From: Rusavskia elegans
Lineage: Eukaryota; Ascomycota; Lecanoromycetes; Teloschistales; Teloschistaceae
Length of the DNA stretch: 64,000 nt
Direction of reading: 5' to 3'
NCBI GenBank assembly: GCA_011316305.1
Contig: SAUG01000013.1
Location: forward strand, 124,001-188,000
Positions 868 to 10,055 of this stretch are shown in pieces (positions within the stretch are counted from its first letter, which is position 1; the number at the start of each line of letters is the position of its first letter). The translations under genes were made by a program, and so were the position numbers. A model generated the notes under the pieces. It made no database searches. It saw only the letters and a list, made by a program, of their open reading frames with translations, and was not told where the DNA came from.

Positions 868-1737
868 GATGGCTGCCTTTCCCAGATCCTCGAGCGGTGT
901 GTAGTGCCCCTGGATATGGACAGTGAAGATTGCAGGACAGAGGTTGGCGAACAACAGAATGGTGGGAGAGTGTTAAAGTCCACAAGTTGCAGTGGCCATA
1001 CTCGTCTCGCGAAGGTCCAGACATGGTGCTATCAGGAAGCTATCAGGAAGCTATCAGGGAGCTAAAACTGAAGTAGTGGTTCCTCGATGAGGTGAAGGTG
1101 CTGCTTCATGCAGGGCGGGGAGTGTTGATTGCATCTGATTGGTTCAGGAACAGCTCTAGCGGCGTTCTTCTCGCTTACTGATTGACGAGGGGTCGAGGGG
1201 TCGAGGGGTTGAGCGTCTGCTGACTTGCTTGGAGTAAAAAATTTATATCCTACCTTACAGGCTGAAGCCTTTCAGAGTTCTAGCCAAGGTAGTATGTACC
1301 GGGCCAGTCTTATGGTTGCCAGGGGTCATCTCAGGATAAAGCATTTGACGGTAATCGGAGTTCAATTAGAAGTTGTAAACGCTGAGGGGTCACTGTCGCT
1401 TCTTCTCAAGTACTTTGCAAATATAATACGTGACTCGTCAGTGCGAAGACATCATACAATACATGCAGTCTCGTGGTTACTGTGAATGTAGCGCTGTAAG
1501 TCTCGGGGAAACGGTACAGGCATATATCAAACCCGGAATGGAAATCCCACACGATGATTTTGCGGGACTGCAACGATTGACCCTGCGTGACTGATCAGAG
1601 TCGAATCGAAACGTTGTCTCCTCATGGACTGGGGACAGATGACTTCTCAACGGCCTCCCAGAATTCAGCAGACTACTCTATGTAGGTAGAAACGGTGAAA
1701 CTCAGCCTTGAGCCTCGGCAAAATATCACCCTTCGCC
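868..1737. other. Intergenic, divergent promoter region
   Basis: Lies between the minus-strand permease and the plus-strand YAP-binding-like gene, so both promoters should be here. Apart from the 11-bp tandem repeat and a GGGGTCGA-rich stretch near 1185-1210 I see no gene; short open frames here have no family-like content. Confidence 0.6.
1028..1063. repeat. Short tandem repeat, about three 11-bp units
   Basis: Three adjacent copies of GCTATCAGGAA (the third with one change), plus a trailing GCT, lie about 160 bp upstream of the permease start codon. They are visible directly. They could be slippage or repeated protein-binding sites in the permease promoter; nothing distinguishes these. Confidence 0.6.
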
Positions 1738-3797
1738 ATGTCCAACAACGACAATCCTCTAATTAAAGCTCTACCCCCGGCGGTCGACTACCTCTCTTAC
1801 CTCACGATCCTCGAATACAACTTGACGCTTGAGCAGCTCCCTCTCCTCCATGATATTCTCCAAGACACAGCTTTGACTGCCAACATTGGCTGGGATCTCG
1901 TCCATCTACTCCTCCCACTACTGCCGCAATCCCAGCAATGTCTGCAGGACGTCGCTCGGTTGGGGAACCCCCGAGAAGTCGTCTTGAAAGTCACAGAGCT
2001 TCTCGAAGCTCTTGCAACCCCGGATGAAGAGATAACGGAAGAGGAATATGAGGATGAACAGGAGCAACTCGGTGACAGCGAAAGGGCAGAGGATAGCCGA
2101 CCGGACGACCCCCCAACTGGAACAGCTGTATCCAACGAAAAGAATACTTCCGCCGCTGCTTCAAGGCAAGCGGGCGATTCGACATCTTGTGAGGGACCAT
2201 CTAACGTCTCGCAATTCTCCGCCCTCCTCGACATGCTTGCCATCCTCCATCCTCGCATCAAAACCAAATACCCCAGCCGCTTCCTCTCCACATCTCTGCA
2301 GGCAGTACTTCCCGCGTATGCTACTCTTGTTCAAGATGCCCAGGCGACCGATGCTGTTCTCAGGTTTATCAATACGTTTGCTGGAGCCAAGAGACCCAGG
2401 CTGCCGCCTCGGAAAAGCAGTACCCAAGTCCCTACCAAAGTCGCGCAGCTCCCTGCAGCTGCACCTGATCCTGAAGCGACTGAGGAGTCACTGGCACCCG
2501 GAGAGACAGCCTTGAAGGAGAAGCTTCTCCAGTCGTTTCTCACTTTCGTTGCGGAAGGATATATGTCCTCGCTGCCCGTCGATGATGATGTTCCAGCGTT
2601 GTCATGGTCTATCAGGCTGCTGGAGCATCTTTACCCCGAAAAAAATATTCCAGGCAGAAGGACAACTAGCGAGGCGTTCGAAGAAGACGAAGCACTTCAC
2701 CGCCGTGACTCTACGGTAGGACAAATGCTCGTGAGTAAACTCGTCCCGTATGGTGGTAGGCTACTAATAATTCCCAGGCTCTTACAAGTGATTTTAGCCT
2801 CGCACTCGAAGATCTTCGCGGCGCTCTTGTCGAGCCCGATACCCTGGCCAATGACGAGTCCACTGATCTTCCGGCCTCCGCGTCTGAGGTCCCTCTCTCC
2901 CGCCCTGGCTGCTTTTACCTCCTCTGCGCCAGCTACGCATCAGCAGTCCTTTTCCGTGCCCCTTCAAAGCAACGTCAAGACCCCAGCAAGCCAACAATCT
3001 TTTCTCTCCTTAGTGACTTCCTTGGCGACCCCTCATCCTCTACGTTCGGCAGTGAATCCCTCTCACTCATCGATTCTCTTCTCTTCTTCGGACACTATAC
3101 TCTCCATGGCGATGATTTGGGAAGCTTCCTAGAACGACCCGAAAATGACTCTGTGTTCACTAAGACGTTGCAATACTTTTCCATTATTTCAGCCAACACC
3201 CCATCAGCCGCACTCCGATACGCTGCCCATCTCTTGACATCAAAGATCTTGCACGCCCACCCTAACGATCACCTGAGATTATCATTCATCAAGGACACAT
3301 TGCAGCACTGTCCATACGAGAACCTCAAGGGCAGCGCCGTCGGGTGGCTAAAAGATGAGATTCTGGCGGCGAACACACCAAAGATTTCCAGCGCTGCGGG
3401 TCAACGGTCTCTGGAAGGGAGTAACGAGAAGACCAATTCTAGCATTTTCGCAACACCAACCTGCATCGCAACACTCACCCCCCATCTCTTCATCTCTCCA
3501 AACAACATGACGACCAAGGATGAATTCAACGCGCATGAAGGCTTCTTCCTTGCAGCGCTGAATTTATATTATCTGCTCCTGTGCAAGGAAGGGCTGAAGG
3601 AAAAATTAGATCTCCGGGGTGCAATGGTGCAGGTCGAGGAATTAAAGGCAGATGGTGGATGGTTAGGTTCGATGGAAAAGGGCCTCCAGCGATTTAGAGA
3701 TGCAGGCGTAGACGAAAATGGTAGGGATGTGGAAGGAGGGGAGCAAATGAACTTGCTGGAGGGTATGATCGCTATGTGTAAGGAGAAAGATAGGTAG
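1738..3797 (+). CDS. YAP-binding/ALF4/glomulin-like protein
   Basis: Alpha-helical protein of the fungal YAP-binding (Ybp1)/glomulin-like family. Known members act in the cytosol in oxidative-stress signalling or bind cullin-RING ligases; the role here is inferred from the family. Two exons, 1738-2730 and 2778-3797, are split by a 47-bp intron (GTGAGT, CTAATAAT branch, CCCAG) and give 670 residues, close to yeast Ybp1. The N-terminal half is leucine-rich helix (NPLIKALPPAVDYLSYLTIL onward), an acidic stretch lies near residues 100-115 (EEITEEEYEDEQEQ), and a Ser/Thr/Pro-rich loop follows near 120-160. The C-terminal half (LDLRGAMVQVEELKADGGW) is again helical. An in-frame ATG at 1708 would add ten residues; 1738 fits the usual start MSNNDNPLIKAL better. 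The family call rests on recalled similarity. Confidence 0.75.
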
Positions 3798-4507: not shown

Positions 4508-4975
4508 TTACATGATCGTGCAGCCTGTGAAGGCGAAGCCTGTTTTGGGAGCATGTCAGCTGGGTGTTGTTGTCTGTGCGGGTTTTGATCCTTGAGGGGA
4601 GGGGGATGAGGGTGTGTAAGGGGTGGGCCGTTTGGGCGATGTTTTTCGAAGGATGAAGAAGGAAGGAGAGAAGGATTGTAGAGGTAGGGGGAAAGAACGT
4701 ACCACGACCCTCATCGTACTCCTCAGGCGCGGTCTCGGCGGCCATGACGGTGCAGCCTGTGAATGCGAAACCTGTATTTAATCACATGATCAGCATTTGC
4801 GTCGCTTATCATACTTTTCATCCTTCTTTCCTTTGACTTGCTGGTCTTTGGGGGAAGGATGTTGGGAAAAGGGGCTATAGGGTAAATGGCGGTGGAGGGG
4901 GGTAGACATACCGCGACCTTCGTCACGCGGGGCAGGGATCTCAGTAGGAGCAACGGCGACGGTTGAGGGAGACAT
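4508..4975 (-). CDS. CaaX lipopeptide precursor with two repeat units (pheromone-like)
   Basis: Three small exons, 4975-4912, 4771-4703 and 4539-4508, give a 54-residue protein with introns of 140 and 163 bp (GTATGT...ACAG; GTACGT...ACAG). A further probable intron in the 5' leader spans 5146-5032 (GTGAGT...CTCTAG). The protein starts MSPSTVAVAPTEIP, then carries two copies of DEGRGFAFTGCT(V/I)M: the first is internal (CTVM), the second is the C terminus (CTIM, then TAA). C-T-I-M is a legal CaaX box for farnesylation, proteolysis and carboxymethylation. Small size, MSPST-type start, acidic spacer and terminal CaaX match ascomycete a-factor-like precursors; repeated internal CTVM units recall the h-type precursors described in Trichoderma. 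Both introns interrupt the same Gly codon of each unit (phase 1), and exon 2 is exactly 23 codons. The pheromone role is inference; a small prenylated protein of another kind is the alternative. Confidence 0.72.
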
Positions 4976-6268
4976 TTCTGCTGGTTTGGGATCGGTAAAG
5001 CGGGAAGGCTTTGAGTTGGATTTGGTTTGAACTAGAGATTGTGGACAGAGTGAGCAAAAGTCGACGTAGGGTGGAGCAGGAGGTGAGCGTGTAATGGGAA
5101 AGGAGGTGAGGGGCGACTGTGAGGCTGGGGGGTGGGGTATACTCACGGTTTGAAAGAGTGTGATCTGAAATGAAGACTGATCTGTGGGTGACAGAAGAAG
5201 AGTTGTGGAAAGGGAGCGGTTGCTAGATTTATGGTGGAAAGTGGAAGAAAGAAAGATGGATGACACCGGAAGTGAGTAGCTTGAAACTCGATGTAGTCAA
5301 TGGCGTTTGAACCGGACTGGTGGATGTATGTTGAAACGATCCTGGGGGTGAATGAACTGCTCTTCTTTCGGTCGTTGGTATTCTTCCTTTGCAAATTTGG
5401 TGGAGTGATGATGGAGGTGCCAGTCTTTGTATGGGCTTAGTATTGTTGTTATTTTAGTATTGTTCTTCAAAGTGCGAATGATTCTGGATTAACGCAAGAT
5501 GCCAAGATAAACTGCATCAATGGGTAAAATCAGATGACTCGTGACGCGTGGCGCATTCATGATGGATGAGGCGCCGGTGAGTCAGATATATCCTAACAGA
5601 ATGAGGATGTGCATCGGACCACAGTAACTTTTACCTATTTCGAAAGGGAGCATCTTTCCCCTCTGACAAAGTACGACAAAGAAAGAACACAGAAAAGATA
5701 AGAGGATGCTTGTTCATGGCTGAACGGCTTGTATTGTCAATTGAGATGGCAGAAAGAGGGCTCCGAGGAAGCCAGAGACAGTTTGGTAGAACAGTGGAAC
5801 GAACTATCGCAGATTGCTGATCGGTGATAATTGTACAATACTACCCTGAGACCGCAGAAGTCGACGCTTAGGACTTGGAACAATACCACAGCAGCTGTCG
5901 AGAAGAAGCTGCTCTGACCCTGTATTAAAGGGGCAAGACCGCACTTGTGCCGCATGACTGGGGGCAGTGATGAAGAAAGGTCGAAGATGCACAAGGGCTA
6001 AGGCATGCTGGATCACAAAGCAATGCTGATCTTGGAACAGACTGATACAACAAGCTGTCGCCGCTTTCATGAGGATTCTGGAGAGCGTGTGGTTCAAAGA
6101 AGGTTCAGTGTCGGTCCCTTAAGCGAGCGCATCTGTTGCGCTTAGTATTGTTCTTTGCAGCCATTGTCCTCGACCCAACCAATCATGGGACGGAACCTCG
6201 ACCGGTTCGCAGCATCGTTCGATATGGACGTTCATTTCTGCATTCGTCCGACATTGGTCTGGTCATGT
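4976..6268. other. 5' leader of the peptide gene and intergenic DNA
   Basis: 4976 to about 5400 is probably the leader and promoter of the minus-strand CaaX peptide gene and contains its likely leader intron (5032-5146). From 5400 to 6268, up to the end of the phospholipase D gene, I see only short open frames with no family-like content. Confidence 0.5.
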
Positions 6269-9200
6269 TTACGTATAGACCTCCTCCGTGAACGCATTCA
6301 GACTGACCCCCTCCTTTGCAATGTCTTCTTTGATCAAAAACAGCAAAGGCATCTCTACCAATGTTCCTTTAATGGTGCTGAGCAGCTCCTTTAGTTCCCC
6401 AATCCCCGGCTGGCCAGGAGAGAAATTCTCGGCAACGACGTGCCCCCACTCATATCTGGCGGGCACTTTTCTCACCTCTTTACCATCTGCGCCCTTTTCC
6501 GACATCTTGAAGAAGCTTTCGTAGAAGTTGTCGTAATCCTTCCATGTACGGACATCATCATGAGGTACCGGATGAAATGCTCGGCCAAACGCAACGGTGT
6601 TCTGGTGCGCTCGGCTATTCCAAAGGTTGATGAAGCTGTTCGACAGAGGATCGACTACCAGTCGGTCTTCGCTCGACCCAAAATCATAGATGTTGGGCAC
6701 ACCGATCGGTTCGAAATTGGCGTCTGGTCGCTGCATATCTTGTGCTCGCAGCAAGCCAAGATGTTTCCGAAAGAGCTGCCTCCGTAGTGTAGCTGCAAAT
6801 TTGGTAGCCCGCCATGGTCGACCGTTCATATACGAGTCAATCGGGGTGGGATCTTCGACGATGATGGCGATCTCCGAGTCATGATCTCCATTTTGCGACC
6901 GGTCGTTGAGATTAGCGGACCCACAGATCACTACTCGATCGTCTGCAATGAGAACCTTGGAATGCACGTAGAGTTCCTCGCTGACGAACGCATCCATTTC
7001 CGATACGTTGCCATTCTCCCAAGGAACACTGCGGATATCCACTCCACCAAGCATGTAGCACTCGCTGACGCTGTCCCATCGGCCCGTGCCAAGCCCTTGT
7101 CGCCCTTTCGTGCCTTGGGTGCCTCGCTGGTACTGTTCGTAGCCTTGTCGGTCCATGGTGAAACCTCGGTTTTGACCATCATCTCCTCGCGAGGGGTAAT
7201 CTACTGGAAGTTCAACGGCGTCGTTGTACTGCTGCTGCGCTGCCCCGAAGGCCACCCCACTGCTCTTTTCTGCATCCCGCATGGAGGCGCTACAGTTGAT
7301 ACGATCGTAGTTTCGTAGGTTGTAAAATCGAATGTACTGCGTGGGATCGAATCCTTCATTCGCAATCATCTCCATGATACTGTGGCCTCCGCGATTGATG
7401 GAGTTGTACTGGAACTCCATAATTGCTCGCGTGCCGAGACTCGCATCGTCCTTGAGATCTCCTGCAAATCCAGGGACCGCAGGAATGGTAACGATGACCT
7501 TGTACTTCTCGCCATTTCTCGCAGCCCGAAGTATCCGATCAACGAGTGCTGCCCCGATCTTGTTCCTGACAGGCTTCTGGGAGTCGCCGGTGGCGGTAAT
7601 GAAGAATTGATTCTCGATGTAAATGAAATGTTGGCTTCTCTGGATCACATCGATATACGCATTCTGGATCGAGTGCTCAACGGCAACGCCATGGCTCCAT
7701 TTACTGCAACTTCGAACGATCTGGCAAGAAATCCCGGCGTCCTGGAAGCCACCGTGCAATCGGCCATGATGCTCAAAATTATCTTCCATCCGCTGCACTC
7801 CGTCACTGAAGCGGCCTCGTACAGCTTCTGTCATCCGGTCTATCCCCTGCTCTACGTGGTGATGGTGATGGTGACGTCCGTCCTGATCCATTGAGCCAAA
7901 TCCTCTGGAGCTGCTTTCGTCCTCGTCGAAGTCAACGCCACGGGATGATTGCGGTGGAGGAGCAGAGTACTCCCCGGACCCTTGAACGTCCTGCCTATAA
8001 GGGCTCGCCGGTGGCTGATACTCTTGGTAGGGCTGTGATGTTCGCAGCTGCGGAGAAGCCTCTGGCTGATATGAATGTGGTAGTGGGGTGTAAGAACGCG
8101 TTGATGCAGCCGAAGACCGTTGCTGATATGTGCCAGCCTCATTCTGGTTGAAAGTCAATCTCGAATAGCGCACGTCCTTTCGCACGTCATATTTCTCGTT
8201 GTATATGAAGTTCCACCTCTCCACAAAGTGCGCCCTCAAGTCTTCAACAACCGGCCCTCGGAGACTGACTGAAATGTCGGACCAGCCCATCCTGGAGTTC
8301 GTTGTGCGGTCGAGCTTGTTATTCTGCCAATGGGAAACATCCTGAAAATCAAGAACGCGTGCATTGTTGTATTCTTGACCCGGGAAAACCGTGTTATCAA
8401 GGTTAGATGGGTGACAATCGGCAATTGGATGTTGGTTCAGGTCCCACCGTCCATAACATAGATCCAGACCACCCATGAACGCCGTCCTGCCATCGACAAC
8501 GCAAAGCTTTTCATGGTGTGCCCAGTAAAGAATGACATCGTCGTTCATGCCGTAGACGGCTTGCAACGCATCCAAGGGTAAAGACGCTGCAGTCTTTGCA
8601 GACAGTGAGAGGTTTTGTAGAGAAGATAGGAAAGACGACTGCAGGGTTTGGGCATCAGGTAGATGGTCGGGATGTCGGAAGACCGCTATATTAGGATGCA
8701 GTTTTTCAAGGGCATGTTTGGTATGGCTTGAGCAGACTGGGACAAATGGGCTCATCAGCTGGTTTTCCGACTCCAAGTACTCAAGCGATGCAAAGGTGGC
8801 AGCCAAGCCTAAACCGGTCAAGGTAGAGCTGAATCTATCGGTATGGCGAGGCAGGAGAGAATGAAGATATCGAGGTATGGTTGGGGACAAATACTTACGG
8901 GTAAGAGCTTGTGTGACTTCTTTGTAGACAATGATGTTCACCCTCACTCCGCGCTGAGCAGCAGCTTGAAGCATGCGGTCAATTCGATATTGTTCATTGT
9001 TGGCCGGTGGTCTTCGAAGATATAACTCTGGCGACAGCCACCAGTCCATAATCCAGATAGATTCTCTTGCTTGCTCTAATGCTCGAGAGACCGCCCACAT
9101 GTACCCACACCCATCCACATACCACTTGATGTCATTGTTGTTCCTTTGAGCTCCGAAGCTACCGTAGCGATTTTGAGATGGATTGTGCATGCTGTTATCG

Positions 9201-9538
9201 CACTGGGTCCCTGAATGCGCATGACTGCTGGTACTGGCTCTTCCTGAAACTCTCTGTTGTAATTCTGATCCAAGCCCATGCACCGCACCATGCAGGGTAT
9301 TGAAAAGGCCCGAGACTAATCCCGTCGGCTGCCCAGGACCTCCATTGGCAGGTATGCTTGACGGACCTTGCCCTGAATATTTCCCTCGAAATTTGCGATA
9401 AGTGTCCCCAATCAGGCCTCGCTCGTCTCCTTCGCCATCGTACTGGCCATCCTGGTAATCGTTCTGGTCGTTGTTGGGTGAGGACCGTCCATGGTAGTCG
9501 CCGTAGGCCAGCGGGTCTTCCCTATACTCTTGCGACAT
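6269..9538 (-). CDS. Phospholipase D (two HKD motifs)
   Basis: Hydrolyses phosphatidylcholine to phosphatidic acid and choline at membranes. Both HxKxxxxD half-sites are present: HHEKLCVVDGRTAFMGGLD near residue 287 and YVHSKVLIADDRVVICGSAN near residue 804 of the spliced protein, the latter followed by NDRSQNGDHDSEIA. The whole span is open (1089 codons), but 8898-8737 looks like an intron of 162 bp: donor GTAAGT, acceptor TTTGTCCCAG, removing 54 codons. Splicing restores QALTLCSSHTKHALEKLHPN, the expected run between strands. Exons are then 9538-8899 and 8736-6269, giving 1035 residues. No PX or PH domain is evident at the N terminus, which is disordered and rich in Gln, Gly and Ser. The linker between the HKD halves is long and disordered and includes six consecutive His codons near 7860-7880. 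Confidence 0.93.
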   Translation of the reverse strand: MSQEYREDPLAYGDYHGRSSPNNDQNDYQDGQYDGEGDERGLIGDTYRKFRGKYSGQGPSSIPANGGPGQPTGLVSGLFNTLHGAVHGLGSELQQRVSGRASTSSHAHSGTQCDNSMHNPSQNRYGSFGAQRNNNDIKWYVDGCGYMWAVSRALEQARESIWIMDWWLSPELYLRRPPANNEQYRIDRMLQAAAQRGVRVNIIVYKEVTQALTRKYLSPTIPRYLHSLLPRHTDRFSSTLTGLGLAATFASLEYLESENQLMSPFVPVCSSHTKHALEKLHPNIAVFRHPDHLPDAQTLQSSFLSSLQNLSLSAKTAASLPLDALQAVYGMNDDVILYWAHHEKLCVVDGRTAFMGGLDLCYGRWDLNQHPIADCHPSNLDNTVFPGQEYNNARVLDFQDVSHWQNNKLDRTTNSRMGWSDISVSLRGPVVEDLRAHFVERWNFIYNEKYDVRKDVRYSRLTFNQNEAGTYQQRSSAASTRSYTPLPHSYQPEASPQLRTSQPYQEYQPPASPYRQDVQGSGEYSAPPPQSSRGVDFDEDESSSRGFGSMDQDGRHHHHHHVEQGIDRMTEAVRGRFSDGVQRMEDNFEHHGRLHGGFQDAGISCQIVRSCSKWSHGVAVEHSIQNAYIDVIQRSQHFIYIENQFFITATGDSQKPVRNKIGAALVDRILRAARNGEKYKVIVTIPAVPGFAGDLKDDASLGTRAIMEFQYNSINRGGHSIMEMIANEGFDPTQYIRFYNLRNYDRINCSASMRDAEKSSGVAFGAAQQQYNDAVELPVDYPSRGDDGQNRGFTMDRQGYEQYQRGTQGTKGRQGLGTGRWDSVSECYMLGGVDIRSVPWENGNVSEMDAFVSEELYVHSKVLIADDRVVICGSANLNDRSQNGDHDSEIAIIVEDPTPIDSYMNGRPWRATKFAATLRRQLFRKHLGLLRAQDMQRPDANFEPIGVPNIYDFGSSEDRLVVDPLSNSFINLWNSRAHQNTVAFGRAFHPVPHDDVRTWKDYDNFYESFFKMSEKGADGKEVRKVPARYEWGHVVAENFSPGQPGIGELKELLSTIKGTLVEMPLLFLIKEDIAKEGVSLNAFTEEVYT

Positions 9539-10055
9539 CTCGGCAATTATCCTCGCGAACTGACTGTGCTGTCGTTGAACAGATTCTTCTATGCCATCCG
9601 ACGTTGCTCTCGTGAAGCCAAAACGGTTCAGTGGTAGCTGTTATGACCGCTGAAACAAAGTGATTTTGGTGTATAAAGGTCCCTCGAGGGCGCTGACATC
9701 ATTGGTCATCAGCCTCGCTCAAATCCGTGCCAAGAAAGAAAGGTCATGACTTCGATTTGTGCCTTGAATACGTACCACTACAAAATGACCCGTTGACATG
9801 GTACTGATTAGCAAGCTTGTTGAAAATGGAGGCACCAAGGGCGGTCTCCCCCACATGTGCCGGACACTCCGCTTCTCCGCAACCAAGGCCTGAACGATGA
9901 CATAGGTGGGACTCCGCACAATGGCCCATCCTACCACCACTACTATCTGGTCTCCAGGTACACAACATCTGCCAATTTCTGTCGGGTCGAGCTCTCACGA
10001 CCCTCGGAAAAGCGACGATATCCAGGACTCACTTTGAGCGCATAGAACCCTAGCG
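9539..10055. other. Divergent promoter region between phospholipase D and cyanase
   Basis: About 0.5 kb between the start codons of the two divergently transcribed genes. No open frame with family character and no clear repeat seen. Confidence 0.55.

What the first reader, a model, noticed from the sequence alone, without database searches (positions are those of the whole stretch)
4508..4975. Repeat-exon CaaX peptide precursor, likely a lipopeptide pheromone gene
Seen: a 54-residue spliced product with two copies of GFAFTGCT(V/I)M, each preceded by DEGR, the last ending in a CaaX box (CTIM). Each unit is split by a phase-1 intron in the same Gly codon, so every unit is delivered by its own exon, and the middle exon is exactly 23 codons. 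Skipping it would yield a one-unit precursor; duplicating it would add a unit without breaking frame. Known: a-factor-like precursors are tiny and end in CaaX, and h-type precursors with internal CTVM repeats are described in Trichoderma. Inference: this is a related but differently built pheromone precursor that small-ORF gene finders would miss. An internal CTVM would need cleavage after Met to become a CaaX terminus.
Basis: partly seen in the sequence, partly recalled or inferred. Interest (0 to 1): 0.88.

Follow-up and report, generated by a model that had tools for sequence, protein, structure and literature searches.

The report
Two-unit CaaX pheromone-like gene, lichen fungus
A probable lichen-forming fungus carries a tiny spliced gene for a 54-residue protein made of two near-identical units with lipid-attachment signals, most likely the precursor of a fatty mating pheromone; repeat precursors of this kind are known in other fungi, but here each unit is split by its own intron.

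Summary
Minus-strand exons 4975-4912, 4771-4703 and 4539-4508 encode 54 residues with two units DEGRGFAFTGCT(V/I)M. Both introns are phase 1, in the same Gly codon of each unit, with good splice signals. An annotated 54-aa orthologue in Xanthocarpia lactea keeps both units and a terminal CaaX box (48 of 54 identical). An unnamed ENA protein matches the exon 2 tail 15 of 15, then stops matching at the predicted donor. Six of seven base differences between the units are synonymous, so the internal unit seems selected as protein. No second copy was found; the genome has MAT1-1-1, STE2 and STE3. Best reading: a two-unit a-factor-like farnesylated pheromone precursor. Mating function is inferred, not shown, and nothing explains how the internal unit would be released (no dibasic site). 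Multi-unit CaaX precursors are already in print (HPP1, Huntiella, rhodotorucine A); new here are the lineage, as far as my searches reach, one intron per unit, and a shared Met that could start a 24-aa one-unit precursor. Exon skipping is possible in frame; no evidence bears on it.

The parts
4912..4975 (-). Exon 1: start codon, leader MSPSTVAVAPTEIPAPR and DEGR plus the first base of the Gly codon of unit 1
   Evidence: 15 of 17 leader residues identical in P0001
4772..4911 (-). Intron 1, 140 nt, phase 1, GTATGT donor, CTGAT branch site at -22, ACAG acceptor
4703..4771 (-). Exon 2, 69 nt: (G)FAFTGCTVM of unit 1, linker AAETAPEEY, DEGR(G) of unit 2
   Evidence: P0002 shares 15 of 15 residues up to the donor
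4743..4745 (-). Internal Met codon, last residue of the internal CTVM; could start a 24-aa one-unit precursor MAAETAPEEYDEGRGFAFTGCTIM
   Evidence: reading frame and context; use as a start is inference
4540..4702 (-). Intron 2, 163 nt, phase 1, GTACGT donor, CTGAC branch site at -20, ACAG acceptor
   Evidence: donor position supported by P0002
4508..4539 (-). Exon 3: (G)FAFTGCTIM and stop codon TAA; terminal CaaX box CTIM
   Evidence: CTVM in P0001
5032..5146 (-). Possible 5' leader intron (GTGAGT..CTAG), no CTRAY branch site
   Evidence: weak
1699..3797 (+). Neighbour, convergent with the gene: YAP/Alf4/glomulin-family gene (PF08568), in two overlapping open frames
   Evidence: flanking gene, not part of the system
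6269..9640 (-). Upstream neighbour: phospholipase D gene (PF13091, PF00614)
   Evidence: flanking gene, used to place the organism

Best explanation
This is a real gene with three coding exons, without a detected second copy, of a fungus that is probably a Teloschistaceae lichen former; it encodes a two-unit a-factor-like (CaaX) lipopeptide precursor. Shown: the reading frame and splice signals, conservation in a relative, the two units, the terminal CaaX box, the lack of dibasic sites, and pheromone receptors and prenyltransferase, M48 and ICMT family members in the same genome. Inferred: the terminal Cys is farnesylated (X = Met), the last three residues are removed and the Cys is methylated; an N-terminal cut near DEGR/G leaves a peptide such as GFAFTGC or DEGRGFAFTGC with a farnesyl methyl ester, exported without a signal peptide and read by STE3. 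The internal unit is kept by selection on its protein sequence. The simplest origin, untested, is an in-frame fusion of two tandem one-unit genes, each with one intron in its Gly codon, in which the final Met of the first CaaX box became the initial Met of the second gene. Whether the internal unit is itself matured is open.
For: Structure and splice signals. Orthologue P0001 of equal length with both units and a terminal CTVM; identical residues 15/17 leader, 13/14 unit 1, 8/9 linker, 12/14 unit 2. P0002 stops matching at the predicted donor. Six of seven base differences between the two 14-codon units are synonymous; binomial P 7.6e-4 against 22.6% expected. The introns show no similarity above shuffles (99 of 500 reach the score), so the duplication looks old while the units stayed alike. 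STE3, MAT1-1-1 and STE2, the MAT gene lying between frames that I read by eye as SLA2 and APN2. ICMT, M48 peptidase and prenyltransferase family matches. Published a-factors are small, lack a signal peptide and end in CaaX/CpaX (PMC3068285, PMC13037118, passages).
Against: No transcript, peptide or mutant evidence. The prenylation and processing families are housekeeping (recalled) and I did not tell their members apart; M48 and ICMT also ring in 10 and 5 of 14 control genomes. PMC13037118 asks for a hydrophobic N-terminus, which this protein hardly has. The published Leotiomycete candidate is not expressed by mating type, and its authors argue against a classical mating role. Only one full-length orthologue was found; wider searches gave none. 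The synonymous-change test treats all changes as equally likely, and the unit borders were chosen after seeing them. The alpha-factor gene was not found by one pattern search. No Pfam family matches.
Confidence: 0.6

Rival explanations
1. Prenylated small protein without a mating role: the terminal CaaX box anchors a short protein to membranes, where it serves a vegetative or developmental function.
For: High conservation (48 of 54; the overall divergence from X. lactea was not measured) and no proven mating link. The Leotiomycete CaaX candidate showed no mating-type-dependent expression and in B. cinerea was highest in sclerotia (PMC10569646; there M. fructicola showed none and A. resinae had one mating type only). 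A CaaX box alone is not diagnostic, as that paper says.
Against: The unit is duplicated as peptide plus CaaX, which has no evident use in a mere membrane anchor; size and layout resemble multi-unit a-factors.
Confidence: 0.27
2. Both units are matured (a sub-case of the best explanation), as described for rhodotorucine A and suggested for h-type precursors: a protease frees the internal unit so that its CTVM becomes a C-terminal CaaX box.
For: The internal unit is as conserved as the terminal one (13/14 against 12/14) and differs from it at six synonymous sites and one other. Tandem CaaX precursors giving several peptides are described for rhodotorucine A and suggested for HPP1 (PMC3068285).
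Against: CTVM is followed directly by AAET; no dibasic site in the protein (it has no Lys at all); a cut after Met is not a step of CaaX maturation that I know of.
Confidence: 0.2
3. One-unit isoforms (a sub-case of the best explanation): an internal start at the shared Met (24 aa) or skipping of exon 2 (31 aa) makes ordinary one-unit a-factor precursors beside the two-unit form.
For: Both read in frame to the same terminal CTIM; the shared Met is kept in P0001 and P0002.
Against: No transcript evidence; the internal ATG lies behind a start codon with a good context. That P0002 begins at that Met reflects a gene caller, not translation.
Confidence: 0.12
4. Chance reading frame or artefact of choosing splice sites.
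For: No RNA data; small product; no Pfam family.
Against: Orthologue at E 4.5e-25 and exon-limited similarity in P0002.
Confidence: 0.02

Closest known systems
h-type (hybrid) pheromone precursor HPP1 of Trichoderma reesei and relatives in Hypocreales (PMC3068285; abstract, sections 5 and 6, and passages read)
   Same: Small (48 aa), no predicted signal sequence, repeated GC(T/S)VM motif with the last copy forming the terminal CaaX box; unique copy; processing of internal copies unexplained
   Different: HPP1 has three copies of a 6-residue motif, T. reesei HPP1 has two Kex2 sites (dispensable), and its authors found orthologues only in Hypocreales (PMC10182648 also names Verticillium); here two 14-residue units, no dibasic sites, an intron inside each unit
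Repeat a-factor genes of Huntiella and other Ceratocystidaceae (PMC10182648, passages and discussion part 1; PMC13037118, passages)
   Same: Similar peptide units, each followed by its own CpaX/CaaX box, no signal peptide; need for extra processing stated as unknown in Huntiella
   Different: Huntiella: up to seven gene copies, up to five units, stated to be without introns; unit sequences quoted there do not resemble this one by eye
Putative a-factor of Leotiomycetes, BCIN_13g03330 family (PMC10569646; abstract, sections 9, 21 and 23, discussion part 1 and passages read; its sequences were not visible to me)
   Same: 45-64 aa, most often ending in CTVM, Ser/Thr-rich N-terminus, Gly-Tyr near the C-terminus in 87 of them (here GF; GY in unit 1 of P0001)
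   Different: No internal repeat is mentioned in the parts I read; homology not testable here because the table letters and supplements were not available
Rhodotorucine A precursor of Rhodosporidium toruloides (seen only as described in PMC3068285)
   Same: Tandem pheromone units separated by CaaX-like spacers
   Different: Basidiomycete; several peptides are produced, by enzymes not known when that paper was written; no relation claimed
Aspergillus fumigatus a-factor-like pheromone / ppgB (Krappmann et al. 2025; only its mention in PMC11787670 seen, paper not held)
   Same: a-factor-like pheromone in a non-Sordariomycete Pezizomycotina
   Different: Sequence and layout not seen; no comparison possible

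Membership tests
Ascomycete a-factor (CaaX) pheromone precursor | Very short precursor ending in a CaaX/CpaX box | tested here: met
   54 aa ending CTIM; CTVM in P0001
Ascomycete a-factor (CaaX) pheromone precursor | No secretion signal peptide; hydrophobic N-terminus (criteria of PMC13037118) | tested here: inconclusive
   By eye the N-terminus lacks a long hydrophobic stretch, which fits the first part and not the second; no signal-peptide program was run
Ascomycete a-factor (CaaX) pheromone precursor | Cognate receptor STE3 in the genome | tested here: met
   PF02076 at C61, E 2.7e-56 and 2.5e-26 for two stretches; 0 of 14 control genomes
Ascomycete a-factor (CaaX) pheromone precursor | Expression in MAT1-2 cells, farnesylated peptide secreted, needed for fertility | not testable with these tools
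   no RNA, peptide or mutant data
h-type / multi-unit CaaX precursors | Repeated unit with an internal CaaX-like box and one at the extreme C-terminus | tested here: met
   two units, 13 of 14 residues identical in the window, 12 of 14 in P0001
h-type / multi-unit CaaX precursors | Three copies of (L/I)GC(T/S)VM (strict h-type definition of PMC3068285) | tested here: not met
   two copies, TGCT(V/I)M; so not filed as h-type proper, only as built like one
alpha-factor-type precursor | Kex2 dibasic sites between repeats | tested here: not met
   no KR or RR found by script; KK and RK absent by inspection
Leotiomycete BCIN_13g03330 family | Sequence homology to BCIN_13g03330 | not tested
   its letters were not available; protein searches over about 30-94 and 91-290 aa gave only P0001 and P0002, and nothing, respectively

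The most novel reading that the evidence does not exclude
Lichen fungi of the Teloschistaceae use a lipopeptide mating pheromone whose precursor is assembled from exon modules: one intron in the same Gly codon of every unit lets exon gain, loss or skipping change the number of pheromone units without shifting the frame, and the last residue of one CaaX box doubles as the start Met of the next unit, so that one gene can yield two-unit and one-unit precursors.
Probability: 0.12. Interest if true: 0.8.

Novelty: new variant of a known kind. Interest (0 to 1): 0.5.

Why it matters
a-factor pheromones outside Sordariomycetes long went unfound; PMC10569646 calls its Leotiomycete candidate the first in Pezizomycotina outside that class, and PMC11787670 cites an Aspergillus one. 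My paper searches (capped listings of an open-licence library) showed no a-factor from a lichen fungus. A concrete 54-residue candidate makes mate recognition in lichens testable with a synthetic farnesyl peptide. The conserved internal unit without an evident cutting site poses the open question of how multi-unit CaaX precursors are processed in a clean, two-unit form.

Tried and rejected
Paralogues: a six-frame search of the own genome at E up to 10 found two stretches, both exons of this gene. Of 14 GGNTGYACNRTNATG sites in the genome (6 for the reversed control) two are this gene's, and only the one in exon 3 is followed by a stop codon. Wider relatives: the protein search over about 30-94 aa gave 2 of 2 candidates; the one over about 91-290 aa gave 17 candidates, none at E 10 or better; genome contigs (bacteria and archaea) gave 223 pattern matches, none confirmed. 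The protein database does hold many fungi: in the phospholipase D control 25 of the 120 listed rows (of 2005 hits) bear genus names that I take, from memory, as Teloschistaceae; no X. lactea row is among the 120. So the lack of more hits reflects missed small genes or divergence, which I cannot tell apart. Alpha-factor by the pattern WCxxxGQxC: 4 sites against 2 in the control, none repeated in its frame, two with a stop codon inside; dropped. Upstream TGAAAC sites at 5282 and 5332: 32 in the window on both strands, and no TGAAACA between 4976 and 5900; CAAAG, 203 in the window, 6 there; neither given weight. Common origin of introns 1 and 2 by alignment: not above shuffles. HMG-box hits: 6 of 6 read as peptides by eye; none was taken as MAT1-2-1, but the one at C141 (L012) resembles MAT-type boxes, so absence of MAT1-2-1 is not settled. 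Literature for the unit letters: 30 papers, 20 listed, none on fungal pheromones by title; one listed paper on a bacterium holds TGCTVM and was not opened.

Full report
What is there. On the minus strand of the window, between a phospholipase D gene (6269-9640, minus, upstream) and a YAP/Alf4/glomulin-family gene (1699-3797, plus, convergent), three short exons read MSPSTVAVAPTEIPAPRDEGRGFAFTGCTVMAAETAPEEYDEGRGFAFTGCTIM. Both introns (140 and 163 nt) interrupt the Gly codon of each unit in phase 1, have GTATGT/GTACGT donors and ACAG acceptors, and CTGAT/CTGAC branch sites that begin 22 and 20 nt before their ends. Exon 2 is 69 nt, 23 codons. The proposed 5' leader intron is weaker (GTGAGT, CTAG, no CTRAY). 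No Pfam family matches the product.

Where it is. The window belongs to an assembly of 44,163,098 bases in 217 contigs. The phospholipase D neighbour is 96% identical to an unnamed database protein and 84-89% to the next ten, among them proteins of Calogaya, Squamulea, Polycauliona and cf. Caloplaca. I recall these genera as Teloschistaceae; Xanthocarpia was looked up as Teloschistaceae, Xanthorioideae, Lecanoromycetes. So this is most likely a lichen-forming fungus of that family; the species is not settled.

Is it real. The protein search returned 2 of 2 candidates. P0001, annotated in a metagenome-assembled Xanthocarpia lactea genome, is also 54 aa, and 48 of 54 residues are identical: leader 15/17, unit 1 13/14, linker 8/9, unit 2 12/14; both units and a terminal CTVM are kept. 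P0002 (E 6.1, not significant by itself; unnamed ENA source) starts at the Met of the internal CTVM, is identical over the 15 residues up to the predicted exon 2 donor and matches 3 of 20 residues beyond it: the similarity ends where the donor was predicted. The chance-frame reading can be set aside.

What selection says. The two 14-codon units differ at seven bases; six are synonymous and the seventh exchanges Val for Ile inside the CaaX box. With 22.6% of single-base changes synonymous, six or more of seven has a binomial probability of 7.6e-4. This simple test ignores transition bias, and the unit borders were drawn after seeing them. The introns no longer align above shuffled sequence (99 of 500 shuffles reach the score). 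Taken together this suggests an old duplication whose two protein units are both held in place. The internal unit is therefore probably not dead weight.

How it probably works. Known CaaX chemistry (established knowledge) would farnesylate the terminal Cys (X = Met), trim three residues and methylate the end. The genome has prenyltransferase (7 stretches on 3 contigs), M48 peptidase (5) and ICMT (1) matches. These are the families of the farnesyltransferase beta subunit, Ste24 and Ste14 (recalled); I did not sort their members, and they are expected in any ascomycete. It has STE3 (two stretches), STE2 and an alpha-box MAT1-1-1 between frames that I read as SLA2 and APN2 by eye, the usual MAT1-1 setting. 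An a-factor gene in a MAT1-1 genome is not odd: pheromone genes of heterothallic filamentous ascomycetes lie outside MAT (recalled), and expression, not presence, is expected to differ. So a receptor for an a-type pheromone exists, and no second copy of this gene was found. I commit to a two-unit a-factor-like precursor at 0.6. The mature peptide would end in GFAFTGC; the conserved DEGR may belong to it or mark the cut.

The internal unit. There is no dibasic site, and CTVM runs straight into AAET. In HPP1 the Kex2 sites are dispensable, and its authors consider a rhodotorucine A-like maturation by unknown enzymes (PMC3068285). The Huntiella authors state that further processing is unknown (PMC10182648). 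This gene shares that puzzle in a small form. Two further routes read in frame: skipping exon 2 (31 aa) and starting at the internal Met (24 aa); nothing found speaks for either. The layout [leader-unit]-[M-linker-unit], with the last Met of the first CaaX box also the first Met of the second part, suggests a fusion of two tandem one-intron genes; no one-unit relative was found to test this.

What is known. Multi-unit CaaX precursors are described in Hypocreales (PMC3068285: abstract, sections 5 and 6, passages), Huntiella (PMC10182648: passages, discussion part 1) and other Ceratocystidaceae (PMC13037118: passages). A 45-64-aa a-factor candidate, most often ending in CTVM, is described in at least 111 of 124 Leotiomycetes (PMC10569646: abstract, sections 9, 21, 23, discussion part 1, passages). 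It showed no mating-type-dependent expression in three species, on thin data: no expression at all in M. fructicola, one mating type only for A. resinae, and MAT genes barely expressed. An Aspergillus fumigatus a-factor-like pheromone is cited in PMC11787670 (passages; the paper itself not held). The ten paper searches listed no a-factor of a lichen fungus; several listings were capped (for example 20 of 1,738, 20 of 30, 10 of 151) and the library lacks most subscription journals. By the strict h-type definition (three copies) this gene is not a member; it is built like one.

Verdict. Observation confirmed; interpretation partly supported; a new variant of a known kind. Interest 0.5: a good candidate for a missing pheromone in a large fungal group, with an unusual intron-per-unit layout, but with function unproved and the general design already in print.

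Noticed in passing
L008 (G000:C170:302500-312400): An alpha-box MAT1-1-1 gene lies between frames that look like SLA2 and APN2, so the assembly carries a canonical MAT1-1 idiomorph; among six HMG-box hits elsewhere none was taken as MAT1-2-1, though the one at C141 (L012) resembles MAT-type boxes by eye.
   Followed up: partly
window 4743-4745, minus strand: The Met that ends the internal CTVM could start a 24-residue one-unit precursor; the same Met is present in both relatives found.
   Followed up: partly
window 5282 and 5332: Two TGAAAC motifs 50 bp apart upstream of the gene; 32 such hexamers occur in the whole window, so this is weak as a pheromone-response signal.
   Followed up: partly
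G000 whole genome: No alpha-factor gene turned up with one WCxxxGQxC pattern although STE2 is present; the alpha-factor may have another repeat sequence, be split, or be absent.
   Followed up: partly
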